Assembly: GCF_030295325.1 (NCBI RefSeq) | Contig: NZ_AP027059.1 | Coordinates: 1,174,637-1,238,636, forward strand | Direction of reading: 5' to 3' | DNA: 64,000 nt | Source: Haliovirga abyssi | GTDB lineage: Bacteria > Fusobacteriota > Fusobacteriia > Fusobacteriales > Haliovirgaceae | In this document: in pieces, positions 39,368-58,934 of the stretch | How positions within the stretch are numbered: position 1 is the stretch's first letter | Layout of the letters: every line of letters begins with the position of its first letter | The notes under the pieces: model-generated | What the model saw: the letters and a program-made list of their open reading frames with translations, nothing else | Told to the model about the DNA's origin: nothing | Database searches by the model: none | Position numbers and translations under genes: made by a program

Positions 39368-40306
39368 TTAATATTTTAGATATGTTGTAAAAGTTATATC
39401 ATCTTGAGAATTTCCATTGAAAATATCATCATTTCCAAAGTATTTCATCTCATATCCAATATCAACTCCTAAATCTATTTTTTTATTATTAAAATTTATA
39501 TCCAACGGAAGAAATCCAACTCCTACAGTGTAACTTTTTTGGGCTTCTATATTATCTATAGAATTTAAATTTCTAGACATACCTACTCTTAAATCAAGTT
39601 TTTTATAATAATTTCTGCTAATTCCAATATTAAATCTATCACCATTTTCTATTTCACCTATTGCTTCTATATTTTCTTTATTATATGCAATAGAGAAAAT
39701 TCCTTCTTTATCTAATGTTTCACTATAATTATCTTCATTTTTAATCTTCCACTCCAAAGATGATTTTATATTCTTAGCAAAATATCCTATTGTTATATTT
39801 TTATTTAAATCAAAAGATATAGCCATATCAACTCCACTACCTTGAGCTTTGCTCTCTGACAATGCTTCATATTTTATTCCTTGAGCTATAGCCTCTTTCA
39901 TTATTACATCTGTTGCAGATACATCTTTTGAAACATTAACGTTATACAAATTAAAATTAAAACCAATTTTTATTATATTAAATTTATATGCAGTAACAAA
40001 ACCTATTTTATCAGCTTTTAATATATCACCAGATTTTTCATATCTAATTCCCAATCCAAATTTATCTGTATTCTTACTTAATTCAAACTCTTTATAATCT
40101 ACCACTCCAAGATTATTTTTTTGACTCATTTTCACATTCCAACTATTATTCTTTTTACTAATATATTTTATAGGACTATCTAAGCTTAGTAAGCCTCCCA
40201 TACCAGATGATTTTCCATCTAATGGAATCGATGTAAAAATAGCATTCTCTGTAGCAAACGTAAAGCTTGAAACAACTAACATTAATATCAATATTTTTTT
40301 CATCAT
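39368..40306 (-). CDS. Outer-membrane beta-barrel protein (PorV-like, distant)
   Basis: About 312 residues from ATG at 40306, after AGGTGA. Signal peptide ends FTFA. The mature N terminus PLDGKSSGMGGLLSLDSP recalls the GxxxxGMGGA start of PorV/PorQ-like barrels, and the rest alternates polar and non-polar residues, ending with an aromatic (TTYLKY). It directly follows the 2330-residue surface protein, separated by a hairpin. Probably an outer-membrane partner of that protein; the family call is tentative. Confidence 0.6.
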   Translation of the reverse strand: MMKKILILMLVVSSFTFATENAIFTSIPLDGKSSGMGGLLSLDSPIKYISKKNNSWNVKMSQKNNLGVVDYKEFELSKNTDKFGLGIRYEKSGDILKADKIGFVTAYKFNIIKIGFNFNLYNVNVSKDVSATDVIMKEAIAQGIKYEALSESKAQGSGVDMAISFDLNKNITIGYFAKNIKSSLEWKIKNEDNYSETLDKEGIFSIAYNKENIEAIGEIENGDRFNIGISRNYYKKLDLRVGMSRNLNSIDNIEAQKSYTVGVGFLPLDINFNNKKIDLGVDIGYEMKYFGNDDIFNGNSQDDITFTTYLKY

Positions 40307-40328
40307 AAATCTCACCTCTCTCTTTTTT

Positions 40329-40356
40329 GCCCCTTCTATTTTATAATAGAAGGAGC
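40329..40356. other. Intercistronic hairpin after the 2330-residue gene
   Basis: Stem GCCCCTTCTATT / AATAGAAGGAGC (one G-T mismatch) around TTAT. The T-rich side is on the plus strand, so for the minus-strand transcript it is followed by AAAAAAG, not Us. It may be a processing or stabilising structure, or a terminator for antisense RNA. Confidence 0.6.
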
Positions 40357-40363
40357 ATTATTT

Positions 40364-43300
40364 TTATTTTAATAATATTACTACTTTGTTCTCACTTAAT
40401 TCTCCTGCGATATCTTCAATTGTTAATCTAACTATATATCTTCCATTTTTCACTTCATTCCCATTATTATCTAATCCATCCCACTTCTCATAATATTTAG
40501 TAAGTTTACTTCTCATATCATTGTCTACTAAAGTTTTTACTAATTTACCATTTTCAGTATAAATTTTTATAGTTGCATAAACTATACTTTGCTCGGCAGA
40601 TGTAAATTTATATCCTATTAAAGTTCCACCGTTAGCTGGAGTAAATGGATTTGGATAAATCTCAAAATCAGTTATTCCTAAAGGCTCACTTAATACCATT
40701 ATTGCATATTTACCAAATCTATTAATATTTACACTAATAGAATCACTATTTACACTTTTCCCATTGTCTATCTCTTCCCATTCTATTCCATTCCATCTAT
40801 ATATTCCAAGACTATCTTCTCCAACTTCCCTTAAATCTATATTTGACGGAATTGGTAATGTTAACACTGTATTGCTATTTCCTAAAATTTTAAATTCTGG
40901 AGATATTTTATATACATCTCCTGCAATATCCAAATTTCCTTCTGGTAAAGATGGAATAGCTGTTTTTATAATATTTATTACTTCATTATTCGTCAATGAA
41001 TCTTCAGCTATATTTAATTTAACTCCATTTTCTCTTCTTATTTCTTTTGCATTGCTATTTGCTGTTTCATATACTTCAACATTTTTAGAAATAGTCTTAT
41101 TTTTATATCTCACCGTAATCACAAATTTTCCAACTATTCCTTCTTGAGTTTTTATTTTCTGAGTATTTTCATCTAACACTGCATTTGAAGAATCAATTAT
41201 CACATTGTCAGGTTTAACCTCAAATCCGCTTGTCCCTTCTGGAATTAACATTAACGAATATCCAACTGTCGTTCCTGCTTTTACTTGACTAGAAGTTAAT
41301 TGTAATTCCAATTTTACTTTATCTAAATTAACTTCTATAACCTTTACATCTACGGAAGTAATTAATCCATCTACATTAACTTCTATTGTCTCTATCCCTA
41401 CTTTATTTCCTGTTACGCTAACGATATTTTTATCAACTACCGTTCCTAATGTTGCAACTCCATTATCACTGATTTTTTCCCATTTAAAGCTACTTGAAGT
41501 TGTAGTTGCAATATGTCCATACTTATCATATCCTTTCGCTTCTAGCTCTATAGCATTTCCTTTTACTATAACTGGGATTTCAGGAACTATTTTTACTATT
41601 GACAAATCTCCAACTATCTCTATAGTTTTTGTTTCTGTTTTTGTTATATTTGCTCCATCACTTGCTTCGATATAATATGTTAAAGTTCCTGCGTCATTTA
41701 AGGTAAACTCTTTTACATACTCTCCATTTACATCTTTAGTTAAATCAAAACTGTTTATATTGCCATTATTAACAGTATAATATAATTTTGCATCTTTAAC
41801 TATTTCATTATCTGTTATTGTTGCTACAAATTTTATTGTATTATCTTTTTTATATTCTTTTATTTCTGTTTTATCTTCTATAACTGGTGCTTCTTGGTCT
41901 GTTGATTTATCTATTTTAACAGAACTATTTATTACAAAATCTGTATCTGAAACGACTAAATTTTCTTTTGTAACTTCACTATAACTATTTTTTCTTACAT
42001 TTAATTTATAATTTCCAGATTTATATTCCAATATTATATTGTAATATCCATCTCCACCACTATATCCTTCACCTAACAAATTACCATTATTATCCAAAAT
42101 TCTTACTGCTGCATCTGAAATTTTAGCTCCTGTACTATCTGTTATTATTCCTTCAAATCTCATTTCCATAGGAATCAATGTTAAATCTTCCACTATTTTA
42201 TCTTCACTATTTGTACTGATTTCTACTTGCTTTGAATTTTCTTTAAATCCTATTTTACTTAATAATAGTGTATATGTTCCCTTTCCTAAAACTTTTCCAG
42301 TATCATACGCACCTGTTGAATCAGCATCTAATCTCAAAACTTTTGCACCATTACTATCAAATATATTTATCTTTGCATTTTCTCCATTTATTATTTTTCC
42401 AGAAATACTGCTCTCTTTTCTTTCTATATTATATGTTTTTGTAATTGCGTTTGAACTAACTACTATAACATCTTCTATTTTAGAAATACCCTCTTTTATT
42501 GATAAATTATATTTAGTTCCATCTTCATTATATGGTATTCTATCAAACATTACAGTTCCATTTGTATCTGTTTTGCTAACTTCATTATTAAGAGTTATCT
42601 CTACACCTGTTATTGGATTATCTGATTTGTCTTTCACAATAATTGTAATTGTAGATTCCAATTTCTCTAAAGTAGAATTCACTACATTCTCTCCTTCTAC
42701 TAAACTCTTAGTAATTGTAACTGTTTTATATCCAAATTTTGTTACTGTTATCTCTAAATTTGTTGCTGCTTTTAATCCTTTAATTTCAAATTTTCCTTCA
42801 GAATCTGCTGATATAACTATATTTGTATTTGTTTTAATTGTTGCATAACTACCATTTAATATATTTCCAGAAATATACGCTTCTTTTTCTAATAATACAT
42901 TTTTTATCTCATTATTACTCTCATCTAACATCTTTCCATTTGAATCTACTGTTACATTAATAGATTTTGTTATATATCCATCTTTGCTAACTTGCAATAT
43001 TCCTTGACTATTTTTTAATGCTTCAATCGTAACAGCACCATTTTCATCAGCTTTTAAACTCTCTACATTTTCATTTGTATACAATTTTATACTTGCACCT
43101 GTAGTTGTTTGTAATGAAATATTTGCTACAATAGAATCTAATTTTATTGTATTCACTGATGTTGTATTTAAAGCTTTAAACGTTGTATTTGTACCTTCAG
43201 GTATGTTATATCCATATTTTAATATATCTAATGTATAATCTTTATTCTCTTCTAAATCTTCAAATCTAACATTACCTTCAATATCACTATATTTTATTTT

Positions 43301-46300
43301 TAAAACACTATCTCCATCTTTTAATTTTACAATAGCATTAGGTATAACATTAATTCCAGATACTATTTTTGCTAATATTTTTGCATCATATTTTGTAACT
43401 TTTATCTCATTTACAGTTTGAATTTTCACATCTGTTGTTAATTCAGGTATTGTTATATCTGCAACTTTTACATTTGATTTAGATGGAATTATCTCTACTG
43501 TATATTTACCTAGATCTAATCTATCAATATTTAAACTATCAGAATTAAAATCTCCTCTTCTTATTACATTCCCTGCTGTTTTCAATATGTAACTAGCTTC
43601 TAAAGGTAAACTGAAATTTAATCCAATTTTTCCATCTAATATTTTTAATACTAAACTTCCCTCTTTATTTGAGCCAGATATTGTTATATCTAAATCTTCA
43701 CTTTTATACCCCTCTTTTTTTACTTTAATTGTATATGTACCATCTTCTAATTTAGGAGTAGCATACTTTCCAAAATCATCTGCAAATCCACTCCAAACTT
43801 CTTGGCTATCTTTTTCCAATGAAAGTTTTGCATTTGCTCCATTTGTTATTGTACCTGTTATTTTTCCTCCTAATTGAGTCAAAGTTCCAGAAACTGATAT
43901 ATCTGTTGGAATAACAATTGATTTTGTTTCACTACTATATCCATCTTTTACAAATGTAGCTTTATAATCTCCATATGGCAATTCTTCATCTACTGCTGTT
44001 CCTGCTGTATTTAAATTTATAGTTCTTGAAACAACACCAGCTATATAAACCGTTACAGAATCTTGATTAGCAGAAATAGATATATTTCCTGTTTCCACTT
44101 GTAAAGATATATCAGACAATGGCTTTATCTCTTTTTCTGATACAGTTATTGATTCTGTATAATCTTTATATCCTATTTTACTAACTGTTAAATTATATGT
44201 TCCAGCTATAGCTTTCAATAAGAAATTTCCATTATCATCTGTATTAGCTATAATATCATCTATATTACTACTGCTTAATTTTACTTTTGCATTTGGAATA
44301 TTTACTGTTCCAGATATAGTTGCTCTAACATCTTCTACATTTAATATTAAATTATCCATATTTTCAACTACATTAAATAATTTATTTATATCACTATATC
44401 CATATTTTTCTGTATGAACTGTAATATTTCCAGGTAATGTTCCTAAAATAAATTTTCCACTACCATCTGTGTAAGTTTCTGTTTTATCTGTATATACCTT
44501 TATTCCACTCATTGCATTACCTTGAGAATCTCTAACCATTCCTTTTAATGTCAATGGTTGCAATTCCAAATCATTAAAATCTTGAGTTACAGTTTTACTT
44601 AGATCTACAGTTACATTATCAACACTACTACTATTATAACCTGCTTTATTAACTGTAATTTTATATATACCAGGTATTAGCGCTATTTTATAATGCCCAA
44701 TATCATTTGTAGTAATATTTATATCTCCTACAAGAACATTAGCACCATTTACAGGTATTCCATTTTTAGTGTACACATTACCTTCTATATATCCTATATT
44801 TTTTTGTATCAAAACATCTTTACCTAATATATTGCTTCCTGCCATCAATATTATATCAAATGCCTCTGCTTTGTATAAAGTTTTGTTAATTGTAATATTA
44901 TAACTTCCTGGTAGTAATTCTAATCTATATTTACCAAAATTATCTGTAAAACTTTCTACATTTCCAGCTACAACACTTACCCCTCCTAATGGAGCTCCGC
45001 TGTCCTTGTCTAAAATTTTACCCTCTAATATTACGACATTTGCATTTAATGTGAAATTTTCTCCTGAAATAGTATCTCCAGCTCCAATTGTTATAGACTT
45101 ACCTGCACTTGCATATCCAGCTTTATATGCCGATAAATTATAAGTTCCATCTCTTAATGTTAAGCTATATTCTCCATTTGAATTAGAATAAACTTCACTG
45201 TCTCCTGCTGTTATTTTAGCTCCAGATATTGGTTCTCCGTTTGAATCTTCTATTCTACCTAATATGCTGCTACTATTCACATTCATTAAAATACTTAAAT
45301 TAATAGCTTCTCCATATCCAACTGATTGAGATATACTTTTTTGTTGTGTATATCCATTTTTTATTACTTTTACTGTATAATCTCCTTTTTTTAAAGATAT
45401 TTGATAATTTCCTAAATTATCTGTATCAGCTTCATATATAGAACTTCCTTCAAAGACTAAATGAGCTCCTATAACTCCTCTGTTATAATTATCTAAAACT
45501 TTTCCTGTTATTGTTGAGGCATTCCCGACTAATGTTATATTTACAGTTTTATTTGCTCCTGGTAAGAAGCTTTGTATCTGCTCATTAGAAGTTACAAAAC
45601 CTGTCTTATATGAATAAAGATTCCAATCACCAGGTTGTAATGAAAAACTATAACTACCATCTTGTAATGTCTTAACTTCATATCGGTTAAGATTATTATA
45701 TAGCACTACATTCGCATTAACTATTGGTTCTCCATTTTCTGTATAAACTTTACCATTTAATGAAACATTATTTGCAACTAATAGTGTATCACCTAAATTT
45801 AAAGTAGTTCCAGGCAATACATTCATATCATTAACTATTTTAGTAGTATAACCTGAATATTCATATTTTATATTCCATTGCCCTGCATCAATTTTAAAGT
45901 TGAAATATCCATTTGTGTCTGATATCCCTTGATATTCATTTCCATTATAGTCAAATGCTGTAACAATTGCTCCTTTTAAAGGAATACCACTGTCTTTATC
46001 TTTTATTGTTCCTGCTAAATTTGAATTTTTAACAGTTAACAGTACATTATTAACATTAACTGTATCTGGAGATGTAGTTAATACATCTATTTTAGGATTG
46101 GTTGTTTGACTATATCCTTCTAGTACAGCTTCTATATAATATGTTCCTGGAAGCACATTATTTATTGTATATTTCCCATCTGTATCTGTAAGCTCTGGAA
46201 TTATATTTATTTTATTACCTCCAGTGGTTACTAAATACACTTCCGCTCTTTCTAATGGCTTATTATTATTATCTAAAATTGCCCCATAAATATTTTTAGA

Positions 46301-47356
46301 AGGAACATCATATGTAAATGAAAACTCATCACTTTTAGAAGTACCTCCATCTTGTCCTTCTGTTATAACATACCAATAATATTTAGCACTTTTAAAGGTT
46401 CCAGGTGCATATATATTCAAATTAGTGGCTTTTGTTGCCTCATCATAAACTAAAGCTCTTGTACTTATCCCCTGCATATCAACTAATTCTTCAATATACA
46501 CGTGATATAAGTTAGCTCCCTCTACAGAGTTCCAAGAAAAATTAATATAATCTTCTTGAGTTTTAATTCCATTTGTTGGACTTATTAATGATGTTGAACT
46601 TATTGTTGAATATCCATTCAAATTAAATTTTGTCATATCGGTAGTAGATGGAACAGATGTAGAAGTACTTCCTTCTGTAGTTCCAAACATTGGCATTATT
46701 ATGTAATAATATTCTTTTATTCCATCACTATTATCAAATGTAAGTGGTGCTGGATTTCCTACATCAGTTCCTATATCCCCAGCCTCTCCATAAGACAATT
46801 TAGTTTTAGTTGTAGAAACCTGCCAAATTATATTTCCACCACTTATATTAGTATCTCCATTAGAATCTGTATCAACAGAAATTGGACTTCCTGATAATAT
46901 TAATTTATATCCTGCTGCACCAACAATCGGTTCCCATTCAAAGGTAGGAGTTGTTGTAGTTATATCTCCTTTTGGAGATATAGGATTTATTATAACTTTT
47001 GCTTGTAATACTATATAGCTTTCTAACGAATAATATGTCCCACTACTTGTAACAGCTTCTATCTTATAAAACTGTTTAGTTGGAATTGCTGCATCATTTG
47101 TTAAAGTGTAACTATATTGAGAAGCTACTGTAGTTATTTTTGTTTTTTCAGTATAACTTCCATCTAAATTTTTAAATTTCAAACTTGTGCTAACAACAGT
47201 TTCTCCCGACTCAGGAATCACACTCCATTTTATAGTATAATTATCTCCTGAATCTACAGGAAATGTTGGTTGTTCTGTTATAGCTACTGTTGCTGCAAAT
47301 CCAATACTCGTTATTAAAAACATAAATAAAAATATAAAAATATTTTTTAAATTCAT
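40364..47356 (-). CDS. Giant secreted surface protein with many carboxypeptidase-regulatory-like repeats and a YPNPF C-terminal domain
   Basis: 2330 residues. Signal peptide (1-22, ending GFAATV). Residues 25-350 contain fibronectin/Ig-like modules (ITEQPTFPVDSGDNYTIKWS, TPTFEWEPIVGAAGYKLILS). From about 355 to 1780 there are roughly 20 carboxypeptidase-regulatory/CnaB-like modules of 70-80 residues, each with variants of GKVLDNYNRGVIGAHLVF ... DNLGNYQISLKKGDYTVKV ... KNGYTQQ. Later come bacterial Ig-like domains and a ZU5-like region. The last 100 residues have IYPNPFTPANGG, TIKIYTENGKLVKTL, NGRYIVRLTIED and a final VVILLK. This matches FlgD-type/type IX sorting domains. Likely a long adhesive stalk on the cell surface. 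Confidence 0.85.
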   Translation of the reverse strand: MNLKNIFIFLFMFLITSIGFAATVAITEQPTFPVDSGDNYTIKWSVIPESGETVVSTSLKFKNLDGSYTEKTKITTVASQYSYTLTNDAAIPTKQFYKIEAVTSSGTYYSLESYIVLQAKVIINPISPKGDITTTTPTFEWEPIVGAAGYKLILSGSPISVDTDSNGDTNISGGNIIWQVSTTKTKLSYGEAGDIGTDVGNPAPLTFDNSDGIKEYYYIIMPMFGTTEGSTSTSVPSTTDMTKFNLNGYSTISSTSLISPTNGIKTQEDYINFSWNSVEGANLYHVYIEELVDMQGISTRALVYDEATKATNLNIYAPGTFKSAKYYWYVITEGQDGGTSKSDEFSFTYDVPSKNIYGAILDNNNKPLERAEVYLVTTGGNKINIIPELTDTDGKYTINNVLPGTYYIEAVLEGYSQTTNPKIDVLTTSPDTVNVNNVLLTVKNSNLAGTIKDKDSGIPLKGAIVTAFDYNGNEYQGISDTNGYFNFKIDAGQWNIKYEYSGYTTKIVNDMNVLPGTTLNLGDTLLVANNVSLNGKVYTENGEPIVNANVVLYNNLNRYEVKTLQDGSYSFSLQPGDWNLYSYKTGFVTSNEQIQSFLPGANKTVNITLVGNASTITGKVLDNYNRGVIGAHLVFEGSSIYEADTDNLGNYQISLKKGDYTVKVIKNGYTQQKSISQSVGYGEAINLSILMNVNSSSILGRIEDSNGEPISGAKITAGDSEVYSNSNGEYSLTLRDGTYNLSAYKAGYASAGKSITIGAGDTISGENFTLNANVVILEGKILDKDSGAPLGGVSVVAGNVESFTDNFGKYRLELLPGSYNITINKTLYKAEAFDIILMAGSNILGKDVLIQKNIGYIEGNVYTKNGIPVNGANVLVGDINITTNDIGHYKIALIPGIYKITVNKAGYNSSSVDNVTVDLSKTVTQDFNDLELQPLTLKGMVRDSQGNAMSGIKVYTDKTETYTDGSGKFILGTLPGNITVHTEKYGYSDINKLFNVVENMDNLILNVEDVRATISGTVNIPNAKVKLSSSNIDDIIANTDDNGNFLLKAIAGTYNLTVSKIGYKDYTESITVSEKEIKPLSDISLQVETGNISISANQDSVTVYIAGVVSRTINLNTAGTAVDEELPYGDYKATFVKDGYSSETKSIVIPTDISVSGTLTQLGGKITGTITNGANAKLSLEKDSQEVWSGFADDFGKYATPKLEDGTYTIKVKKEGYKSEDLDITISGSNKEGSLVLKILDGKIGLNFSLPLEASYILKTAGNVIRRGDFNSDSLNIDRLDLGKYTVEIIPSKSNVKVADITIPELTTDVKIQTVNEIKVTKYDAKILAKIVSGINVIPNAIVKLKDGDSVLKIKYSDIEGNVRFEDLEENKDYTLDILKYGYNIPEGTNTTFKALNTTSVNTIKLDSIVANISLQTTTGASIKLYTNENVESLKADENGAVTIEALKNSQGILQVSKDGYITKSINVTVDSNGKMLDESNNEIKNVLLEKEAYISGNILNGSYATIKTNTNIVISADSEGKFEIKGLKAATNLEITVTKFGYKTVTITKSLVEGENVVNSTLEKLESTITIIVKDKSDNPITGVEITLNNEVSKTDTNGTVMFDRIPYNEDGTKYNLSIKEGISKIEDVIVVSSNAITKTYNIERKESSISGKIINGENAKINIFDSNGAKVLRLDADSTGAYDTGKVLGKGTYTLLLSKIGFKENSKQVEISTNSEDKIVEDLTLIPMEMRFEGIITDSTGAKISDAAVRILDNNGNLLGEGYSGGDGYYNIILEYKSGNYKLNVRKNSYSEVTKENLVVSDTDFVINSSVKIDKSTDQEAPVIEDKTEIKEYKKDNTIKFVATITDNEIVKDAKLYYTVNNGNINSFDLTKDVNGEYVKEFTLNDAGTLTYYIEASDGANITKTETKTIEIVGDLSIVKIVPEIPVIVKGNAIELEAKGYDKYGHIATTTSSSFKWEKISDNGVATLGTVVDKNIVSVTGNKVGIETIEVNVDGLITSVDVKVIEVNLDKVKLELQLTSSQVKAGTTVGYSLMLIPEGTSGFEVKPDNVIIDSSNAVLDENTQKIKTQEGIVGKFVITVRYKNKTISKNVEVYETANSNAKEIRRENGVKLNIAEDSLTNNEVINIIKTAIPSLPEGNLDIAGDVYKISPEFKILGNSNTVLTLPIPSNIDLREVGEDSLGIYRWNGIEWEEIDNGKSVNSDSISVNINRFGKYAIMVLSEPLGITDFEIYPNPFTPANGGTLIGYKFTSAEQSIVYATIKIYTENGKLVKTLVDNDMRSKLTKYYEKWDGLDNNGNEVKNGRYIVRLTIEDIAGELSENKVVILLK

Positions 47357-47373: not shown

Positions 47374-48885
47374 TTAGAAATTATATCTAATTTTAGAATT
47401 CACACCAAGTCCTTTTCCTATGTCAACTCCAAATTTAAAATTATAATTTTTTACTGTTATATAGCCTGTTTCTATACTTAAATCAGAAGGTACAAATATA
47501 ACTCCGCCTTTTTCCCCTTCTGCCCTTATCGCAGATACTGAACCATCTAAAAACAAAATATGTGCATATGCTTTATACATAGTATCTAAATGATATACGT
47601 CTGCAATAACATTATTCCCAAATTCTGTTACATCTTTTAAATCTTTATAGCCTGCATCATTATCTAAATTATCTTGTGTAATTTCAAAAGTAAATACAGG
47701 TTTGCTAAATTTTTCCATATCTACTCCTAATTTTAATATATTCAAATCAACCATTCCTGATATTTTTGAAGAACTATTATCGTCATAATTATTTCTTATA
47801 TTCTCTTTAATTCCACTTTCTATTACTGTTCCTAATATATTATTTGCTTCTAAAATTATATCATCAATTGCAGCAGATGCTACTTTTATTTTTTCTTCCT
47901 CACTATTCCAATATTCAGGATAATTTTCTTGAATTAATTTTTCATAATCCTCTTTATCATTAATTTTACTTTTATCAGTGTATCTATTTCTTATTGTTCC
48001 TCTATACATATTATAACTATATCCCCATTTTAAAATCATCCAATCAAAATTTACTCCTAATTTATAAGTTGGAGCATATATCTCTTGAGTTCTAATGTTA
48101 TTATAGTTTATATTTATATCATTTCCTTCTTTTCCATCAACTGTTAATTTTAAAATACCTTTCATTTTTTCGTCCAAATTATAATAAATACTTTTATAAT
48201 CTACTCCTGCTCCAATACTTGAATTTAAAAAATTTAATTTTTTAGCAATACCTAATGAAATTTTTTGATATTCATATCTATATTTACTGTTTGTATTAAG
48301 TGATAAATTTGTTTCTAAATTTAAATTCATATCCTCAGTGTTATATTCCGCAGAGATTTTACCTCCAATCTCTTTACCCATTATATCTGCTCTTATGCTA
48401 GATTTACTAAATCCCATTCCAATTGTAAGGGTATCTTTTTTATATATAAAATTAAACCCATTTATTGATGGTGCAAATCCTGTAGAAATTGTTGTTTTTG
48501 GAGTAAATAAATTAGCTTTTGTAATTTTAAAATCTTCTGTGCTATCATCTTTAGTTACTAAATCTGTTTCTTGGTTTTGTACTTCATCTTGCAACTTTTT
48601 ATCTACATCAATATCTAAATTTAATAAACCGCCTAAAAAAGTATCTCCTTTTAACATTTTATTTGTTATTAAAAGAGGAACTGATAAATTGGTACTAATA
48701 TTACTTTTAGACTCATAAGATAAAAATGCTGGATTCCCATATAATCCACCTTCTCCAGTAAAACTATTTGCAGGCTCATAATATCCCGAAGAACCGATGT
48801 TTAATTTTATATTTTCATTATCAGCGAAACTAGCTAAACTAATAACTAAAAATATAAAAGTCATTTTTAAAATTTTATTCTTCAT
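47374..48885 (-). CDS. Outer-membrane beta-barrel protein, unknown family
   Basis: 503 residues from ATG at 48885 (GGAGGG upstream). Signal peptide ends SLASFA. The mature start has SSGYYEPANSFTGEGGLYGNPAFLSY; GNPAFL resembles the NPAxL motif of PorV and TraF-like barrels. Strongly alternating beta pattern and final IRYNF. A long insert (about 280-370) rich in charged residues may be an external loop. Lies between the PorV-like gene and the 2330-residue gene. Confidence 0.65.
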   Translation of the reverse strand: MKNKILKMTFIFLVISLASFADNENIKLNIGSSGYYEPANSFTGEGGLYGNPAFLSYESKSNISTNLSVPLLITNKMLKGDTFLGGLLNLDIDVDKKLQDEVQNQETDLVTKDDSTEDFKITKANLFTPKTTISTGFAPSINGFNFIYKKDTLTIGMGFSKSSIRADIMGKEIGGKISAEYNTEDMNLNLETNLSLNTNSKYRYEYQKISLGIAKKLNFLNSSIGAGVDYKSIYYNLDEKMKGILKLTVDGKEGNDININYNNIRTQEIYAPTYKLGVNFDWMILKWGYSYNMYRGTIRNRYTDKSKINDKEDYEKLIQENYPEYWNSEEEKIKVASAAIDDIILEANNILGTVIESGIKENIRNNYDDNSSSKISGMVDLNILKLGVDMEKFSKPVFTFEITQDNLDNDAGYKDLKDVTEFGNNVIADVYHLDTMYKAYAHILFLDGSVSAIRAEGEKGGVIFVPSDLSIETGYITVKNYNFKFGVDIGKGLGVNSKIRYNF

Positions 48886-48901
48886 ATTTATTCCCTCCAT
48901 T

Positions 48902-49780: not shown

Positions 49781-49799
49781 GAGGCACCTCCTATTTTTT

Positions 49800-49863
49800 A
49801 TCATTACTTCTTATGCTTCACTATTTTTTATTTTATATAAAGCAAAACATAAGAAGTGATGAT
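49800..49863. other. Long intercistronic hairpin after the 1583-residue gene
   Basis: ATCATTACTTCTTATG (49800-49815) pairs with CATAAGAAGTGATGAT (49848-49863) with one mismatch; CTT/AAG extends the stem. On the minus strand it ends in AAAAAATAGGAGG, the ribosome site of the PorV-like gene. The T-tract is on the plus strand. Same layout as at 40329-40356. Confidence 0.6.
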
Positions 49864-49865
49864 TT

Positions 49866-52800
49866 TTATTTTAATAATGCTATTTTATCTATTTTTATAT
49901 ACTCTTTTCCGTCATATCCAATAGCTACTAGCCTTGCAAAATAGACCCCGTTTGAATATCCAGATGCTATCCATGGCACTCTATATACTCCAGCTTCATT
50001 AGGTAAATCCTCAATCATTTCAATCTTTTGTCCTTGAGAACTGTATAAATCTATTTTTACAGATTTCATATCATTAGGTAATCTATATTTAAAAGTAGTA
50101 CTACTTTTAAACGGATTTGGATAATTATAAAATTGCTTAGTTTCCAAATCAATTCCGCTATTATTTATTTCTACAGGAATTATAAATTCGTCTTCTCCAA
50201 TACCTGATCTATTTTGTGCTTCTACTTTTATATAGTATTTCCCATCTGCAACTGTATTTGTATCCCATGTATATATTCCATCATTAAAAGTAGATTTTTT
50301 AGTAATTTCTTTCCAAGTTTTAACTGTATTATCTTTATCATATAAAGAGTAATATAATTTAATATTAAGATTTTTGTCCTCTTCTATGATTCCTGTATTT
50401 GAAGTAGCCTCCCATCTTATATCCCTTTTTCCATACCAAATAATATTTTCTTTTGGTTTGTCTGCTATCCTTACTATTGGAATATAATTTGCTATTGTAA
50501 ATAGATCAGTTTCTGCTGTTGCTGTAAATTTATCATTGTTTTTATCTGTAACTATAATTTTTATCTTTACATTTTTACTGTCTGGGATTCCTTTTAATCC
50601 TTTCTCATAATGTTTTTGTATTTTATCAACTGGATTATCTAATTTTGTATCAAATGTATAACTGTATTCATCTGTTCCTGCTTTTTTAAGATCTTTACTT
50701 TGAGTTAAATCTTCATACAATTTTAACCAGTTCGATCCTCCATTTACAGAATAAAGTAATGATATTTTCATATCTTCATTTACATTATTATTATCTCCAT
50801 TTGGATTATCAGCTTTCCATTTTATTGTCATTATATTTTTTATGATATCTTGCGAAACTGGTGATATCATAAATATTTCTGGATTTCTATCAAGAGTAAC
50901 ATTTATTTCTTTAATAACATCACTTGTCCCATCATTTACTGTTACCTTTAATTTAAACTCTCCTGTTGACGTATTTATACTTTTTAATACATCTTCAGAT
51001 AAATTACTTCCATTTACAAAGCCTGCAATCTCATGTTCTCCTAGGTCATCTATATAAGATAATTTTGTAGTTAAAGAATCTCCATCTGGATCATAACTGT
51101 TCCATGATACTTTAATTTGATTTTTATATACAATAGATTCTTGTGGAGATAAAATAGTTATGCTTGGTTTATGGATAGATTTTAAATTATTAACAATCAA
51201 TTCGCTAGCACCATCATAATTTGTTTTTCCATCGCTTACAATAAATTTCAAACTTACATTATTAGATTCTGGTATTAATTTAGTATTTAAAGAAAAACTT
51301 CCATTATTTGAAATACTGCTATTTAGTACATTCCATGTACTACTATCTAATGAATATGCTATTGATAGCGTTAAGGTATCTCCATCTGGATCTTTAGCTG
51401 ACCACAATATATTTTTTGTTCCACTTAATACTTCTCCTGACACAGGCGAAGATACTTCAATAGTAGGTTTATGTTTTATTGTGAATGATTTTAAATAACT
51501 TGATTCTGTATATCCATATTCTCCTGTTTCAGATGTAGCTTCTGAGTTGTGTCCACCTGAATTTTCTGCATATACTTTTATTTTATAGCTACCTTCATTA
51601 AATCCTTGTGTATCAAAATTAAATTGTCCATTTTGTGCTGTGACGTCTGTCGAATTAGAAAGATCTAACAAATCACTTATAACAGTTCCTGTGCTGTCTA
51701 ACAAACTAATCTTTAATTTATTTATACTTACATTATTTGGATCTACTATATACCAACTTATTTTTTCACTACTTCCACTTAAACTATCTCCTTCTGCTGG
51801 AGATAAAAGTGTAACTTGTGGTTTTTGTCGTACAATTATCGCTTTTTCTTTTGTTAGATATCTTTTATTTCCATTAGAATCCTCTGAAATAATTCTAATA
51901 TCATAATATACATCTGGAGTTAATGATGTTCCTAATGTATCCCAATTATATCCAGATAAATTATAATTTTTTATAATAATCCCTTTTTCTTCTGTAGAAG
52001 TTGTATCTGTTAATAAAGGCCATGCAGATACACTATTTTTCTTATATAAAATATGATATTTCAATGTATCAATTACATCGGGATCTGATGAATTCCAACT
52101 AATTTTCATTATTCTTCCTAATTGTAATAAATCTATCTTCTTATCTAATCCTGTCAACTTATTAAATTTAGGATAATGATTTAATATTGTAAATTCATTA
52201 CTGTTTTCTGCTGAATTAATATTATCACTACTATTTTTTAAAGCTGTATTATTAGTTGTAGCTTCTATTTTTATTTTATAATTTCCATCAGTTAATGCAC
52301 TTATATCCCAATCATATGTTTCTGTAATTTCACTATCTTTAGCAACTAACTGTGTATTTGTCATTGTACCCTCTATAAGAACTGGTGTTGCACTATCTTT
52401 AATGTAATATATTTTATAACTAACATCTCCTATGTTATAACTTCTTATATCATTATTAGTAATTTTAAATGTTACTTTTTTAGATGTTACTTTATCTCCT
52501 GATTTCCCCCATACTATATCATCCGATTTATACCCATAATTACTATCTTTCGTTAAGTTCAATTCTATGGGTTGTTCTACTACAACTGTTGGCTTATCTG
52601 CATTATCTATAACTATTTTTCCGCTAGTTTCTGAAATAGTATAATTATTAGCAGAATTATCTGTAGCTGTTAATTTTACATAATATTCTCCATCTGTTAA
52701 ACTGGTAGAATCCCATGTATAATTACCTATTGCTGATGATGTAGTTACTATAACAGTAGAATTTGAAAAATCACTATTTTGACTATATTCTAATTTAACA

Positions 52801-54617
52801 TTAAAAGTATCATTGTCTGGATCAGTTACATTCCATGAAAAAACAGAATCTTTATTTGCCCAATCTTTAGCACTATTTCCTAATTTTATACTGCTTCCTG
52901 CATTTTTTATATCCCATGTTGTTATTACTGGCGTATGTTTTGTTGTGAATTGTGTTGTTTCTGATGAGCTTACATAAGGTCCTCCATTATTTGGAACAGC
53001 TCCATTGTCTGTTGCTTCTACTTTTATTTTTACGTTAGTTGATTCTGGTATGTTATTTGAATCAAATGTATATTCTCCATCATTAGTTTCTCCTGGTGCT
53101 AATAATACATATGATTCACCATCTACTGAATAAGATATATTCACTTTTAATGTGTCACCATCTGGATCTGTTGCTGTCCATTTTATCTTTGCTGTGTGAC
53201 CACTTATTGTGCTATCTTGAGTTATCGCACTTGAGCTTGTACTTATTGCATAAACTCCGCTTACAGTTGGAGTATGTTTTACTTCAAAAGTTCCACTTTC
53301 TAATGAACTTACATAAGGTCCTCCATTATTTGGATCAGCTCCATTGTCTGTTGCTTCTACTTTTATTTTTACATTAGTTGATTCCGGTATGTTATTTGAA
53401 TCAAATGTATATTCTCCATCATTAGTTTCTCCTGGTGCTAATAATACATATGATTCACCATCTACTGAATAAGATATATTTACTTTTAATGTATCCAAAT
53501 CTGGATCTGTTGCTGTCCATTTTATCTTTGCTGTGTGACCACTTATTGTGCTATCTTGAGTTATCGCACTTGAGCTTGTACTTATTGCATAAACTTCATT
53601 TACAACCGGTCTATGGCTTACTTTAAATAGTTCTGACTCTGTCCATGCGTAAAATCCACTGCTATTTTTAGCTATTAATTTTATTTTTACATTTTTATCT
53701 CCTACTGCTTGGTTAGCTGGCAGTTGTAATATTTTATTACTATTTATACTCATTGTATTATCTGTAGATCCAGTTCCTAAACTATTCCAAGTTGTTCCAC
53801 CATCAGCACTATATTGTGTCTCATATGAATTCGCATTTGTTTCTGCTCCAGTCCATGTAATATTTTGAGTCCCACTCCATGTGGTACTATCTATCGGAGA
53901 TGTAATATAAATATTTTCAACATCTATTGCATTTGATTGAGATGAAACTGCTCTTTCTGAATTACCATGATTTTTAACTAATATTTTTAAAGTATAATTA
54001 CCATTTCCACTAACTACATTTCCTGTTGCTCCTCTTGTATCTAATGTATAGCTAAATAGTTTTGGATTGGCTGTTTTCCCTCCAGTTACAGATTCAATTT
54101 TATCTATACCATTTAATTGTATCTCTATATCACCATTATTTACCTTTTCTCCATTTTCAACTAAAAAACTAACTGTAGTATCATTTGCCCATGTTATATT
54201 AGTAGAGCTTGAATTTGGATTTAATAAAATTGGTTTAAAATTATTCAAAGTAAATCCTGCATCAGATTCATCAGTGATTCCTGTAATATCAGAACCATTT
54301 TGATCTTTCAATGCAGTAATCCTTACTTTAATTTGGCCATCAGTTCCATCAGTTGTTGATGCACTTGTGTCCCAAGGATAATATCCATAAGATGCATTTA
54401 AATCTGTCGCAATCTCCTTCCAAGTAGATCCGTTATCAACACTGTAATCCAATTTTACTGTGGACACATCCAAACTTGTCCCCCAAGTTATATAATATAC
54501 TCCTTTTACTGATTCTCCACCATTTGGCGAAAATATTATTACACTGCTACTTCCAGCTCCTAAAGCTGAAATTGTTACTAAAAAAAACAGTAAGATTTTT
54601 AATAATAATTTTTTCAT
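49866..54617 (-). CDS. Giant secreted Ig-like repeat protein with YPNPF C-terminal domain
   Basis: 1583 residues from ATG at 54617 (GGGAGGG upstream). Signal peptide ends ISALGAGSS. The body is a chain of about 14 Ig/fibronectin-like domains with recurring IKWTATDPDGDTLKVNISYS, GEYTFDSNNIPESTNVKIKV and SPVSGEVLSGTKNILWSAKD. Two neighbouring domains (about residues 340-550) are nearly identical even in DNA. The last 95 residues have FYNYPNPFKSSTTFKYRL, KIDLYSSQGQKIEMIEDL, SNGVYFARLVAIG and end KIDKIALLK, a type IX-like sorting domain. Likely a surface adhesin or filament. Confidence 0.85.
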   Translation of the reverse strand: MKKLLLKILLFFLVTISALGAGSSSVIIFSPNGGESVKGVYYITWGTSLDVSTVKLDYSVDNGSTWKEIATDLNASYGYYPWDTSASTTDGTDGQIKVRITALKDQNGSDITGITDESDAGFTLNNFKPILLNPNSSSTNITWANDTTVSFLVENGEKVNNGDIEIQLNGIDKIESVTGGKTANPKLFSYTLDTRGATGNVVSGNGNYTLKILVKNHGNSERAVSSQSNAIDVENIYITSPIDSTTWSGTQNITWTGAETNANSYETQYSADGGTTWNSLGTGSTDNTMSINSNKILQLPANQAVGDKNVKIKLIAKNSSGFYAWTESELFKVSHRPVVNEVYAISTSSSAITQDSTISGHTAKIKWTATDPDLDTLKVNISYSVDGESYVLLAPGETNDGEYTFDSNNIPESTNVKIKVEATDNGADPNNGGPYVSSLESGTFEVKHTPTVSGVYAISTSSSAITQDSTISGHTAKIKWTATDPDGDTLKVNISYSVDGESYVLLAPGETNDGEYTFDSNNIPESTNVKIKVEATDNGAVPNNGGPYVSSSETTQFTTKHTPVITTWDIKNAGSSIKLGNSAKDWANKDSVFSWNVTDPDNDTFNVKLEYSQNSDFSNSTVIVTTSSAIGNYTWDSTSLTDGEYYVKLTATDNSANNYTISETSGKIVIDNADKPTVVVEQPIELNLTKDSNYGYKSDDIVWGKSGDKVTSKKVTFKITNNDIRSYNIGDVSYKIYYIKDSATPVLIEGTMTNTQLVAKDSEITETYDWDISALTDGNYKIKIEATTNNTALKNSSDNINSAENSNEFTILNHYPKFNKLTGLDKKIDLLQLGRIMKISWNSSDPDVIDTLKYHILYKKNSVSAWPLLTDTTSTEEKGIIIKNYNLSGYNWDTLGTSLTPDVYYDIRIISEDSNGNKRYLTKEKAIIVRQKPQVTLLSPAEGDSLSGSSEKISWYIVDPNNVSINKLKISLLDSTGTVISDLLDLSNSTDVTAQNGQFNFDTQGFNEGSYKIKVYAENSGGHNSEATSETGEYGYTESSYLKSFTIKHKPTIEVSSPVSGEVLSGTKNILWSAKDPDGDTLTLSIAYSLDSSTWNVLNSSISNNGSFSLNTKLIPESNNVSLKFIVSDGKTNYDGASELIVNNLKSIHKPSITILSPQESIVYKNQIKVSWNSYDPDGDSLTTKLSYIDDLGEHEIAGFVNGSNLSEDVLKSINTSTGEFKLKVTVNDGTSDVIKEINVTLDRNPEIFMISPVSQDIIKNIMTIKWKADNPNGDNNNVNEDMKISLLYSVNGGSNWLKLYEDLTQSKDLKKAGTDEYSYTFDTKLDNPVDKIQKHYEKGLKGIPDSKNVKIKIIVTDKNNDKFTATAETDLFTIANYIPIVRIADKPKENIIWYGKRDIRWEATSNTGIIEEDKNLNIKLYYSLYDKDNTVKTWKEITKKSTFNDGIYTWDTNTVADGKYYIKVEAQNRSGIGEDEFIIPVEINNSGIDLETKQFYNYPNPFKSSTTFKYRLPNDMKSVKIDLYSSQGQKIEMIEDLPNEAGVYRVPWIASGYSNGVYFARLVAIGYDGKEYIKIDKIALLK
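52966..53605 (-). repeat. Tandem duplication of a 339-bp Ig-domain module
   Basis: Two units with a period of 339 bases (113 codons) differ at only about ten positions over some 290 bases (for example AACAGC/ATCAGC, TACGTT/TACATT). The other Ig domains of the same gene are much more diverged. A recent duplication or gene conversion in frame is likely. Confidence 0.88.
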
Positions 54618-54687
54618 AATTATTCCCTCCCTATCCACTTAAAATATATTTCGTTATTTCTTTTTTTACAGTTTTTCATACTCCTTT

Positions 54688-55677
54688 CTAAAATTTAAGA
54701 ATAATACTACTAGACAACTCATACATTGATGTGAATATACCACTCCCTTCCAATTTATAATAAACATTTTTTAATATATCTTTTTTGTAATAAAAAGTTA
54801 AATTATTATTATATCTGCTTTTATCTTTTATCAAAATATATGTTAACCCTTTATAAAAATCTCCATAATTATATAACAATTTATAATATAAGTTATTCCA
54901 ACTGATTTCTATTTTATTTAATTTAGAAAAATAATATACTACTCCTTTATTTATAGCACTATCTTCTACATACTCATAAAACGGTTCTATTTTTTTATAT
55001 TTAAAGGCTCCGTAAAATTCTTTTTTATTTTTTTTTCTGTTTACATCATTTTGATTTGAAACTCTTAATTTAAAATTTTTATTATATAGATAAAATTTTT
55101 CTTTTAAAATAAATTTTTTTTCTGTTTTATCAGTAGAAATTTCAAAATTTTTAAAATTAAATAACAAATTCATATTATATCTCTTATCTGTATAGTAAGT
55201 TGAATCTTGACTTATTCTAAGAATATTATTAAAATAGCTTTTATTTAATGCTAATCTGTAACTTTCTACTTTTGCACCTAAATCATTTTTATATATAAAT
55301 CTAGCATAAATATTATAAATATATAATTTGCTATCAATCATACGGGATAAACGCTCTTCTAAGTATCCAAGATTAAAGTAATTTTTATAATAAAGAGTTG
55401 CTCCTATCTTTTTTTGATTTGTTATTTGTTCATTAGTAATATACTCTTTAAATCTAAAATTTCCTTTTTTTTGAAATAAATTTAATTCTTGTTCATCATT
55501 TCCAAATTTTGACATCCATGATTTATCATAAAGCCTTATGTCATAGAGTTGATTTAAAGAAAGTTTTTCATCTTTATAATCACTTTTCAACCCAATTTCT
55601 CCACTATACTCTATTGAAAATGATACTGTACTTAATATTATGGTTAGTAAAAATAAAATGTTCTTTTTATTTATCAT
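54688..55677 (-). CDS. Predicted outer-membrane beta-barrel protein
   Basis: 329 residues from ATG at 55677 (GGAG upstream; the longer ORF overlaps the previous stop). Signal peptide ends STVSFS. The mature protein has many short alternating strands rich in Tyr and Phe (RFKEYITNEQITNQKKIGAT, YARFIYKNDLGAKVESYRLA) and ends with IILKF, a C-terminal aromatic as in barrel proteins. No family recognised. Placed between the SprA-like gene and the 1583-residue cargo gene, so it may be an accessory of that system. Confidence 0.6.
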   Translation of the reverse strand: MINKKNILFLLTIILSTVSFSIEYSGEIGLKSDYKDEKLSLNQLYDIRLYDKSWMSKFGNDEQELNLFQKKGNFRFKEYITNEQITNQKKIGATLYYKNYFNLGYLEERLSRMIDSKLYIYNIYARFIYKNDLGAKVESYRLALNKSYFNNILRISQDSTYYTDKRYNMNLLFNFKNFEISTDKTEKKFILKEKFYLYNKNFKLRVSNQNDVNRKKNKKEFYGAFKYKKIEPFYEYVEDSAINKGVVYYFSKLNKIEISWNNLYYKLLYNYGDFYKGLTYILIKDKSRYNNNLTFYYKKDILKNVYYKLEGSGIFTSMYELSSSIILKF

Positions 55678-55691
55678 AATTATATTCTCCA

Positions 55692-58600
55692 TTACATTGA
55701 AATTTTAGTTTCCATCCCTATCTGATATTCATTATAACTATTAAATTTTTCTCTTAAATCATTATAACTCTCAAGTTTTATATATGGTAATATTTCTATG
55801 AATTTATTATATTGATATTTTCCATCAAATAAAGCATTATATTTAATATAATTATCTTTTTCTTCATCAAATACACTTTTTATTTTTAATTGTTCATTTA
55901 TAAAATATGAGATAGAAACATCTATTTTTTCTGTTATATTTTTACTATATTCATATATGATTTTATATTTTTTATAAAAAATTGATGTTTTAGAATTAAT
56001 AAATCTATCTGTTAAATTATTTTCCAATGATATTTCATAACTTTCCTTTTCATTTTTGCTATAACTATAATTTAAAATTGGAAAAAAATAAGTTTCTTTA
56101 TCATTCAAATACTCTTTTTCTCTTTCTCTCTTTATACCTATTTTAAAAAAGTTATTTATCTTTTTATTAATCAACTCTTTATCATAATTATAATTTTTCT
56201 TATTTGAATATTCTAGTTCAGATTCAAATTTTATATTATCAAAATTATTATTCAACAATAAATTATTCTCTAAATCATAAGAACTTTTTTTTATATTATA
56301 TTTAAATTTTATATTTTTAGAACTATATTTATAAATATTTTCTCCTTGAATCTCTTTGTTTTTATAGTACGAATTCCCACATAACTCATTTTTTTTATTT
56401 TTATATTTCCAATATAAAAAATAGGTTTTATTATCGATTTCATTTTTTAATTCAATTCTCTTTATGCTATCAAAATAAAATGCAGAATAGCTCCTATTTA
56501 AAATATCCTTATTTTTTTCGTAAGAATATGTAAAATTCAAACTATTAGAAATATTACTTTCTAATTTAAACTTATCAATGTCATCACTCTTCTCTATATT
56601 ATACCTATATTTTCTATCCATATCTGTATTTTTAATCACTAAATGATAAATTTTAGAATTTCTATCTAATTCAATCACATTATCATTCCAATTATAATAT
56701 ACATAAAAAAAGTTGTTTATATCTATTATTTTATCTTTAAATATAATGCTATTAATTTTTAAATTTCCTTTTGTAACAAAAGTTATATCTTGCACAGATT
56801 CTAAATCTGATATATCTAAATTTAGTTCTTTAACTCCCATAATAATATCTTTATATTTTTCAACTCCATTTATTTTAATAGTTACTTCTGAATTATCTTC
56901 ACTTTCCATTGAGATTTTTAAATTTTTATAATAATTCTTTTCATAAGAAAAATTATAGCTGAAACTACTATTTATATCTTTCCCATTTATTATTATATTA
57001 TCTTCATTTATAATATAATTTTTTAAATTATTTGTAATTATATTGTATTTTATAAATTTAAAATCTCCTAAAACAACATAGCTATTATTTCCACTTGTAT
57101 TTCCTATATCAAATTCAACCATATTAAATTTTTCTAAAGATTTACTGCCATCAATAAAAAACTCTAGTTTATGCCATCCTAAAAAATTTATTTTAGTATT
57201 ATAACTATAAAATTCCTCATTTTTATCAATAACATTATTATTATTAAAATCTTCTGTATCTAATTTTTCATTATTTTTTCCTATTAAATTTCCACCTATA
57301 TCTATTCCGTTATCCTCATTTGTATCTAAATATCCATTATTGTTTTTATCTTCTGTATCCAGCTTTCCATCATTATCGAAATCTTCATTTAAGCCCCCAA
57401 TTTTTATAGTTAAATCTTCATTTTGATTATCACCATATATCCAAAATGATACTTTTTTTATATTTTTAGATGATATATTTAATTTTTTTCTAATTTTAAA
57501 ATCAGAAGAATAATCAACTTTTATTTTATTTTCAAAATTATAACTTTTATCTTTAACATAATCATCTGAAACTACTGCATTTCCATTAACTAAAAAGTCA
57601 TCTTTACTATTTGTCATCAAATCTTCACTATCTGATACAAATTTTATTTTATTTTCATTAGTTTTATAATTATTATCATAAATCTCTGTCCCAGCTTCTA
57701 ACTTAAAATTTTTACTATTTATATATGTTCCAATTATATCTCTTTTTTTAGATTTTTCTAAGCTAAGATCATAATGGAAATTTAATAAATTATAATTTAA
57801 ATTCAAACTATAATTCTGTATATCCTGTTCAGATTTTCTCTTATAAAATATTTCAACTTCATTATTTGTATTAATTATATTTTTTGAAAATGATAAAATA
57901 TAGTTTGTATTATCCCAAAAATAATCTTTATTCAATTCCAATTCTCGATTTCCGCTATATACTATTAAACTACCTTCCAAAATATCATTTATATTGAATA
58001 TCTCTTTTTTTTCATAATATTCAAATATAATTTTATCATCTTCATTTAAATTATCAACATATAATACGCTTTCATTTTCATAAATATTATAATTTTCATC
58101 TATATATTCTCCATATTTATTTTGAAATTTTACAGAATAATTCGGAGTAGAAAATTTTGGTAACTTATATATTTTTTCTGAAGGCAATATTTTAATTATA
58201 CTATCATCTTCAAATTTGACCATTAAATCTCCATCTTTTGGATTTAACAATTCTATATATTGATTATCAAATATAATATAATCAACATCTTTTTTCAAAA
58301 TATCATAATAATTTCCATTTATCATAATAGCTTTTTCGTTGTTTGTTTTATCATTATCGTTAAAATAAACATCTTTTATATTAGCAATATTTCCACTATT
58401 AGTAATTTTATAATACTTATTTTTTATATAATTATCTTTTGATACTATTGTTTTAATTTTATTCTCTCCAAATACAATTTTTTGACTAATTATATTTGAT
58501 TTTGAAAAGTCTCCTAATATATAATTTTTACTATCTCCATAAAAAAATCCAAATATTTTTGATCGGTTTTTAAAATATTTCATAACAAAATTATTCTTTA

Positions 58601-58934
58601 ATTTAATATCTCCCAATTTTAATTTTTTATAACTAAGTTGTAGTTTATTTTGATTTTCCAATTCTTTTTTATCACTATAATTTATCAGATATTTTATTTC
58701 ATTTTGCTCCCCTTTTACATTTAAAAATATATTTTGTTCTAATTTCATTTCACTTTCATTTTGTTTTATACTACTATTATATTTTCTAAATGTATAAATA
58801 GGTATTACATTTTTTTCTAATGAATACTTTATAAAATCTTTATTTTTATAATTTTTGCTTTGGTTTTCACTTGATTCTTCTGCAAATATAAAAATATTAA
58901 ATATAACAAAAAATATTATCACAACTTTTTTCAT
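55692..58934 (-). CDS. Large outer-membrane protein with Asp-rich calcium-type repeats, possibly SprA-like
   Basis: 1080 residues from ATG at 58934, AGGTG upstream. Signal peptide ends IFIFA. Residues 190-380 carry paired beta modules of the kind VDYIIFDNQYIELLNPKDGD and YSGNRELELNKDYFWDN. Residues 510-570 have four Asp-rich loops: DFDNDGKLDTED, KNNNGYLDTNED, then LDTEDFNNNNVIDKNEE. A jelly-roll-like stretch follows (GWHKLEFFIDGSKSLEKFNM, then VEFDIGN and VVLGDF). The last 400 residues are amphipathic strands with many Tyr. The xDxxG-LDTED loops and the DY-type modules recall SprA/Sov, the type IX translocon, but that protein is about twice as long. Nine bases after xseA. Confidence 0.55.
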   Translation of the reverse strand: MKKVVIIFFVIFNIFIFAEESSENQSKNYKNKDFIKYSLEKNVIPIYTFRKYNSSIKQNESEMKLEQNIFLNVKGEQNEIKYLINYSDKKELENQNKLQLSYKKLKLGDIKLKNNFVMKYFKNRSKIFGFFYGDSKNYILGDFSKSNIISQKIVFGENKIKTIVSKDNYIKNKYYKITNSGNIANIKDVYFNDNDKTNNEKAIMINGNYYDILKKDVDYIIFDNQYIELLNPKDGDLMVKFEDDSIIKILPSEKIYKLPKFSTPNYSVKFQNKYGEYIDENYNIYENESVLYVDNLNEDDKIIFEYYEKKEIFNINDILEGSLIVYSGNRELELNKDYFWDNTNYILSFSKNIINTNNEVEIFYKRKSEQDIQNYSLNLNYNLLNFHYDLSLEKSKKRDIIGTYINSKNFKLEAGTEIYDNNYKTNENKIKFVSDSEDLMTNSKDDFLVNGNAVVSDDYVKDKSYNFENKIKVDYSSDFKIRKKLNISSKNIKKVSFWIYGDNQNEDLTIKIGGLNEDFDNDGKLDTEDKNNNGYLDTNEDNGIDIGGNLIGKNNEKLDTEDFNNNNVIDKNEEFYSYNTKINFLGWHKLEFFIDGSKSLEKFNMVEFDIGNTSGNNSYVVLGDFKFIKYNIITNNLKNYIINEDNIIINGKDINSSFSYNFSYEKNYYKNLKISMESEDNSEVTIKINGVEKYKDIIMGVKELNLDISDLESVQDITFVTKGNLKINSIIFKDKIIDINNFFYVYYNWNDNVIELDRNSKIYHLVIKNTDMDRKYRYNIEKSDDIDKFKLESNISNSLNFTYSYEKNKDILNRSYSAFYFDSIKRIELKNEIDNKTYFLYWKYKNKKNELCGNSYYKNKEIQGENIYKYSSKNIKFKYNIKKSSYDLENNLLLNNNFDNIKFESELEYSNKKNYNYDKELINKKINNFFKIGIKREREKEYLNDKETYFFPILNYSYSKNEKESYEISLENNLTDRFINSKTSIFYKKYKIIYEYSKNITEKIDVSISYFINEQLKIKSVFDEEKDNYIKYNALFDGKYQYNKFIEILPYIKLESYNDLREKFNSYNEYQIGMETKISM

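What the first reader, a model, noticed from the sequence alone, without database searches (positions are those of the whole stretch)
39368..58934. Candidate type IX-like secretion and surface-display cluster in a Fusobacteria-like genome
Seven consecutive minus-strand genes encode exported proteins only. There is a large SprA-reminiscent outer-membrane protein, a barrel (54688), a 1583-residue cargo with a YPNPF tail, a clear PorV/PorQ protein, another barrel (47374), a 2330-residue cargo with a YPNPF tail, and a PorV-like barrel (39368). Cargo and PorV-like genes alternate, as if each giant protein had its own shuttle. Known: PorV delivers C-terminal-domain cargo from the SprA/Sov translocon in Bacteroidota-type T9SS. 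Inference: this lineage uses a related, possibly reduced system. The inner-membrane motor genes are not in the window.
Basis: partly seen in the sequence, partly recalled or inferred. Interest (0 to 1): 0.85.

Follow-up and report, generated by a model that had tools for sequence, protein, structure and literature searches.

The report
T9SS-like surface-protein operon outside Bacteroidota
A seven-gene operon in what is probably a fusobacterium encodes a small SprA-like channel, two giant surface proteins with type IX export tails, and a PorV-type carrier barrel directly after each, which suggests a compact relative of a secretion machine that the literature confines to Bacteroidota and their nearest kin.

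Summary
Seven consecutive minus-strand genes (39368-58943), 0-70 bp apart, all start with signal-peptide-like sequences.

Assigned parts:
- W300 (48902-49804) passes the curated PorV/PorQ cut-off (101 vs 90 bits). It is the only such protein in its genome and among 98 genomes of its phylum.
- W315 (39368) is a divergent PorV-type barrel.
- Both giant proteins end in type IX-like C-terminal domains, shown with a profile built from cargo tails of another phylum.
- W1083 (55692-58943) shares one highly significant domain with SprA, plus two weak segments in the same order. It is half to two-thirds the length of known SprAs, and its barrel could not be matched.
- W334 and W508 remain unassigned.

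Each cargo is directly followed by a PorV-type barrel. The same order recurs at 20 of 31 PorV loci in a candidate phylum whose seven sampled genomes all carry SprA.

PorM/GldM and PorL/GldL were not found in this genome (nor GldL in those seven, nor GldM in the four tested). I lacked a Bacteroidota positive control, so absence is provisional. The PorU (C25) search was uninformative.

Verdict: a reduced, lineage-specific T9SS-like surface-display operon; a new variant of a known kind. Function is inferred from sequence only.

The parts
55692..58943 (-). W1083: reduced SprA-like outer-membrane protein, candidate translocon (ATG at 58934)
   Evidence: BLASTP E=4e-6, 29% over 182 aa to a SprA over the family cut-off; hhalign Prob 96, E=3.9e-9; no direct hit to TIGR04189
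57189..57482 (-). SprA-shared domain of W1083 (residues 488-585: FWI...NEDFDNDGKLDTEDK...EDNGI...TEDFNNNNVIDKNEEFYSY)
   Evidence: 45.1 bits to sub-profile, i-E 2.6e-13, none of 491 shuffles above 6.4 bits; the same region of 4 relatives matches TIGR04189 SprA
57801..58040 (-). weak collinear SprA segment of W1083 (residues 302-381, GSLIVYSGNRELELNKDYFWD...)
   Evidence: 7.2 bits, 0 of 500 shuffles as high; the equivalent SprA segment is matched in PDB 6h3i_A by the relatives' profile
54688..55692 (-). W334: exported protein with a barrel-like aromatic C-terminus, unassigned
   Evidence: no family; no PorV, FadL or SprA match
49866..54638 (-). W1590: Ig-repeat surface protein, cargo A (ATG at 54617 gives 1583 aa)
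   Evidence: Big_7 and other Ig-like hits; 339-bp tandem duplication, 96%
49869..50135 (-). C-terminal sorting domain of cargo A (residues 1502-1590, YPNPF...NGVYF...KIALLK)
   Evidence: 30.4 bits to a CTD profile built from another phylum; Por_Secre_tail 25.1/27 bits in Pfam, TIGR04183 19.3/23
48902..49804 (-). W300: PorV/PorQ-family outer-membrane protein, candidate carrier of cargo A
   Evidence: NF033709 101.2 bits vs cut-off 90; sole copy in genome; 135.9 bits to other-phylum PorV profile vs 14.6 to FadL
47374..48900 (-). W508: exported barrel-like protein with an N-terminal GNPAF motif, unassigned
   Evidence: no family hit; only a 25-residue hint to FadL; AF2 model unusable
40364..47356 (-). 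W2330: surface protein with about 15 CarboxypepD_reg repeats, cargo B
   Evidence: PF13620 438 bits, 15 stretches
40367..40666 (-). C-terminal sorting domain of cargo B (residues 2231-2330, YPNPF...NGRYIVRL...KVVILLK)
   Evidence: 49.9 bits to the CTD profile; FlgD_ig over cut-off in the genome search
39368..40315 (-). W315: divergent PorV-type barrel, candidate carrier of cargo B
   Evidence: hhalign Prob 96.8, E=2.9e-10 to PorV profile over 259 columns, FadL Prob 1.4

Best explanation
The operon encodes a compact, lineage-specific type IX-like route across the outer membrane. Inferred steps: Sec exports all seven proteins. The SprA-like W1083 forms the outer-membrane conduit. The C-terminal domain of each giant protein docks on a PorV-type carrier, W300 for the 1590-aa protein and W315 for the 2330-aa protein. 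The carrier then leaves the conduit with its cargo and keeps it on the surface, as dedicated carriers do for Bacteroidota type B cargos. The energy source is unknown: a very divergent motor, a general one such as TolQR/ExbBD, or cargo folding outside. Shown here: gene order, PorV membership, CTD match, one shared SprA domain. Secretion itself is not shown.
For: W300 is over the curated PorV cut-off and unique in its phylum. Both cargo tails match a CTD profile from another phylum's cargos, and are the best two of 56 window ORFs. W1083 shares a SprA domain at E about 1e-9 to 1e-13, with two weaker segments in the same order. Each cargo is directly followed by a PorV-type barrel, the order seen at 20 of 31 PorV loci of the candidate phylum, whose seven sampled genomes all have SprA. 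FlgD_ig and Por_Secre_tail searches found CTD-type tails nowhere else in the genome.
Against: W1083 is 1083 aa against about 1790 in the relatives and 2403 in F. johnsoniae; its barrel does not align and TIGR04189 misses it. No GldM or GldL found, and in F. johnsoniae the motor is needed to release cargo (PMC10994853). W315 scores within the range of FadL proteins on the PorV profile. The CTDs fall below curated T9SS cut-offs. No structure prediction was usable.
Confidence: 0.68

Rival explanations
1. A complete T9SS exists: divergent PorL/M/K/N proteins sit elsewhere in the genome and the profiles missed them, so this operon is simply its outer-membrane part.
For: T9SS genes are often scattered in Bacteroidota (PMC4793230). 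The SprA profile itself missed W1083, so profile misses are real. No control genome rang for GldM or GldL over the cut-off.
Against: GldM and GldL are undetected here, GldL also in all seven and GldM in four tested genomes of a phylum with clear SprA, PorV and CTDs.
Confidence: 0.17
2. W1083 is not a translocon but another surface barrel that shares only the Asp-rich domain with SprA; the giants reach the surface by another route, with PorV-type barrels as anchors only.
For: Significance is concentrated in about 100 residues of W1083; post-domain and barrel regions do not match. The domain sub-profile does not find SprA in the PDB.
Against: Two further segments match weakly in the right order; the same region of relatives belongs to TIGR04189; the gene heads a PorV/CTD operon.
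Confidence: 0.2
3. Coincidence of ordinary parts: FlgD-like Ig tails on adhesins beside FadL-type porins, with no secretion role.
For: The tails score similarly on FlgD_ig and Por_Secre_tail; PorV belongs to the FadL-like fold group and FadL proteins score 9-40 bits on the PorV profile.
Against: W300 is far above FadL controls; the CTD profile is specific to the two cargo ends; cargo-PorV adjacency recurs across a phylum.
Confidence: 0.07

Closest known systems
Type IX secretion system of Bacteroidota (SprA/Sov, PorV, CTD cargos)
   Same: PorV-family protein, CTD-type tails, a SprA-related large outer-membrane protein, Sec signal peptides
   Different: Probably another phylum; translocon half to two-thirds the length; all parts in one operon with the cargos; GldM and GldL not detected; PorU search uninformative
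Type B cargo and PorP/SprF dedicated shuttle pairs (SprB-SprF)
   Same: Shuttle gene directly downstream of an adhesin-like cargo (PMC12618676)
   Different: Here the shuttles are PorV-type rather than PorP/SprF-type, and the tails resemble type A/FlgD-like CTDs
SprA/PorV/CTD systems of an unnamed candidate phylum (L029/G098-G104)
   Same: SprA, cargo-PorV pairs, CTD endings, GldM (four tested) and GldL not found
   Different: There PorV is expanded to 4-13 copies and SprA stands apart from the PorV loci I read; here one operon holds all

Membership tests
PorV/PorQ family (NF033709) | W300 over the curated score cut-off | tested here: met
   101.2 bits vs 90
PorV/PorQ family (NF033709) | W315 over the curated score cut-off | tested here: not met
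   no NCBIfam hit; profile-profile Prob 96.8 only, so it is filed as PorV-like
PorV/PorQ family (NF033709) | W508 or W334 in the family | tested here: not met
   hhalign Prob 0.8 and 1.5
T9SS C-terminal sorting domain | curated cut-off of Por_Secre_tail | tested here: not met
   25.1/27 bits in Pfam and 19.3/23 in NCBIfam for W1590; none for W2330
T9SS C-terminal sorting domain | similarity to tails of PorV-linked cargos in another T9SS-like lineage | tested here: met
   30.4 and 49.9 bits at the very C-termini; two of the model's source tails pass TIGR04183
SprA/Sov translocon | TIGR04189 cut-off | tested here: not met
   no hit in the genome at E<=10 or for W1083
SprA/Sov translocon | homology to accepted SprA relatives | tested here: met
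   one domain at E 3.9e-9 and 2.6e-13; rest weak
SprA/Sov translocon | 36-strand barrel with cap and lateral opening | tested here: inconclusive
   AF2 without alignment gave pLDDT 27
Type IX secretion system | PorL/M (GldL/M) motor | tested here: inconclusive
   GldL none and GldM one stray 15-bit hit in the genome, but no positive-control genome rang over the cut-off
Type IX secretion system | PorU sortase (peptidase C25) | tested here: inconclusive
   no hit, and the search rang nowhere
Type IX secretion system | PorK, PorN, PorT, SprE/PorW | not tested
Type IX secretion system | CTD-dependent secretion in cells | not testable with these tools
   needs experiment

The most novel reading that the evidence does not exclude
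SprA-PorV-CTD secretion has a motor-independent form found outside Bacteroidota: each surface protein is pulled out by its own PorV-type carrier without PorL/M, and this operon is a minimal self-contained example.
Probability: 0.25. Interest if true: 0.82.

Novelty: new variant of a known kind. Interest (0 to 1): 0.6.

Why it matters
Published surveys and reviews place T9SS only in Bacteroidota or the Fibrobacteres-Chlorobi-Bacteroidetes superphylum (PMC4793230, PMC12421860, PMC11205867). A one-operon relative elsewhere would show which parts are the core of the machine, and would make the energy question testable, because in F. johnsoniae cargo stays trapped on SprA when the motor is missing (PMC10994853).

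Tried and rejected
AF2 of W1083 and W508 without alignments gave pLDDT 27 and 29.5; no fold search was run on them. A viral-contig scan with SprA found no relative, and a plasmid tblastn with W300 only trivial hits. L010, the second-best PorV-profile hit in the phylum, is a FadL-like porin beside a beta-lactamase-fold gene, not a T9SS locus. I considered W334 as a split piece of the SprA barrel: no match. Recent transfer from the candidate phylum: not supported, best PorV identity is 30%. The promoter and terminator scan was barely above shuffles.

Full report
What is there. One search lists seven minus-strand ORFs between 39368 and 58943. In transcription order they are W1083 (55692-58943), W334 (54688-55692), W1590 (49866-54638), W300 (48902-49804), W508 (47374-48900), W2330 (40364-47356) and W315 (39368-40315). 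Gaps are 0-70 bp and the first gene starts right after xseA (58944-60143). All seven begin with a charged stretch, a hydrophobic core and a small residue, which is how exported proteins begin; this is by inspection, not by a signal-peptide program. Four of the five candidate barrels end in F or Y, the usual outer-membrane barrel signature (known rule, read by eye); W1083 ends in M.

Where it is. The window lies on a 2.43 Mb contig of a 2.73 Mb genome rated 100% complete. It is the only genome of its family among the 98 held for its phylum. The tools withhold the phylum's name. A monotypic family Haliovirgaceae exists in the NCBI taxonomy and would fit, but I could not confirm it.

PorV. W300 scores 101.2 bits on NF033709 (cut-off 90). 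No other protein of the genome does, and no other of 98 genomes of the phylum passes the cut-off; the remaining hits there that I read are longer FadL-type porins. A PorV profile built from the candidate phylum gives W300 135.9 bits and FadL controls 9-40 bits. W315 matches that profile by HHalign with Prob 96.8, E=2.9e-10 over 259 columns, against Prob 1.4 for a FadL profile. By HMMER it gets only 24 bits, inside the range of FadL proteins, and its tree position is unsure. I therefore call it PorV-like. W508 and W334 match neither profile.

Cargos. W2330 has about 15 CarboxypepD_reg repeats and W1590 many Ig-like repeats, with a recent 339-bp tandem duplication. Both end in YPNPF...NG(V/R)Y...K....LLK. 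Curated profiles place the tails between FlgD_ig and Por_Secre_tail, just under the cut-offs; FlgD_ig is over the cut-off for W2330 in the genome search. I made a CTD profile from 15 tails of the candidate phylum, nearly all from genes directly next to PorV genes; two of the source proteins pass TIGR04183. It finds exactly these two tails among 56 window ORFs at E=8e-10 or better, with 49.9 and 30.4 bits; the next ORF has 12 bits. Searches of the whole genome with Por_Secre_tail and FlgD_ig found no other such protein.

SprA. The family model misses W1083. Against a SprA over the family cut-off from the candidate phylum, BLASTP gives E=4e-6. Against five such SprAs HHalign gives Prob 96, E=3.9e-9 for residues 497-592. 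Six hundred shuffles of W1083 reach at most 1.3 bits against 36.8 for the real protein. Tested region by region, the Asp-rich domain scores 45.1 bits with no shuffle above 6.4. The segment before it scores 7.2 with 0 of 500 shuffles as high. The N-terminal segment scores 6.5 with 3 of 500 as high. The region after the domain and the barrel do not match. The three matching segments are in the same order in both proteins. The relatives' own SprAs find F. johnsoniae SprA in the PDB (6h3i_A, E=6.5e-25), and the same domain of four relatives matches TIGR04189. The link from W1083 to Bacteroidota SprA is therefore in two steps. The domain alone does not find SprA in the PDB.

Relatives. One genome-collection scan with W300 led to a MAG (L029) of an unnamed candidate phylum with seven sampled genomes. 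All seven have SprA matches, three over the cut-off, and 4-13 PorV proteins each. Of 31 PorV loci read, 20 have a CTD-ending ORF directly upstream on the same strand; others, including L029, have a large exported ORF directly downstream. These loci include orthologues, so the count is not of independent events. The window shows the same order twice: W1590 then W300, W2330 then W315.

Motor and sortase. GldM gave one stray 15-bit hit in the window's genome and none in four candidate-phylum genomes. GldL gave nothing in the window's genome and only sub-threshold noise, like that in control genomes, in the seven. Peptidase C25 rang nowhere, so that search says nothing. I had no Bacteroidota genome with a known T9SS as a positive control, and PorK, PorN, PorT and SprE were not searched. 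Absence of the motor is a lead, not a result.

Mechanism. In F. johnsoniae, cargo enters SprA, its CTD binds PorV docked at the side opening, and energy pulls PorV with cargo away (PMC10994853). Type B cargos each use a shuttle encoded directly downstream (PMC12618676). The window reads as a mix of these two arrangements: PorV-type shuttles in cargo-specific pairs, all in one operon with a shortened SprA-like protein. The likely product is two long adhesin-like proteins held on the cell surface. How it is powered is open.

Comparison and novelty. Surveys report T9SS only in Bacteroidota (PMC4793230) or the FCB superphylum (PMC12421860, PMC11205867). I found no paper in the held library describing T9SS in Fusobacteriota; the library is incomplete, so this is not proof of priority. 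I rate it a new variant of a known kind.

Noticed in passing
L029, L034, L053-L060, L062-L091 (genomes G098-G104): An unnamed candidate phylum carries SprA in all seven sampled genomes, 4-13 PorV genes each, and cargo-PorV gene pairs, with GldL undetected in all seven and GldM in the four tested; a wider and possibly motor-less T9SS group.
   Followed up: partly
window 52958-53595: A 339-bp unit (one 113-aa Ig repeat) is tandemly duplicated at 96% identity inside the 1590-aa protein, a recent length change in a surface protein.
   Followed up: no
window 54688-58943: W1083 and W334 have 18.5% and 19.9% GC against 26% for the window and 25-30% for the other operon genes.
   Followed up: no
window 36472-37419: A transposase-like ORF, possibly degenerate, lies about 2 kb beyond the 3' end of the operon; cold-shock-like and CsoR-like ORFs lie between (read by eye).
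   Followed up: no
L062, L063, L079, L081, L082: In the candidate phylum some PorV domains sit in longer proteins (450-700 aa) with an extra C-terminal domain, some ending like SPOR or OmpA-type peptidoglycan binders by eye, which would fit anchoring to the cell wall.
   Followed up: no
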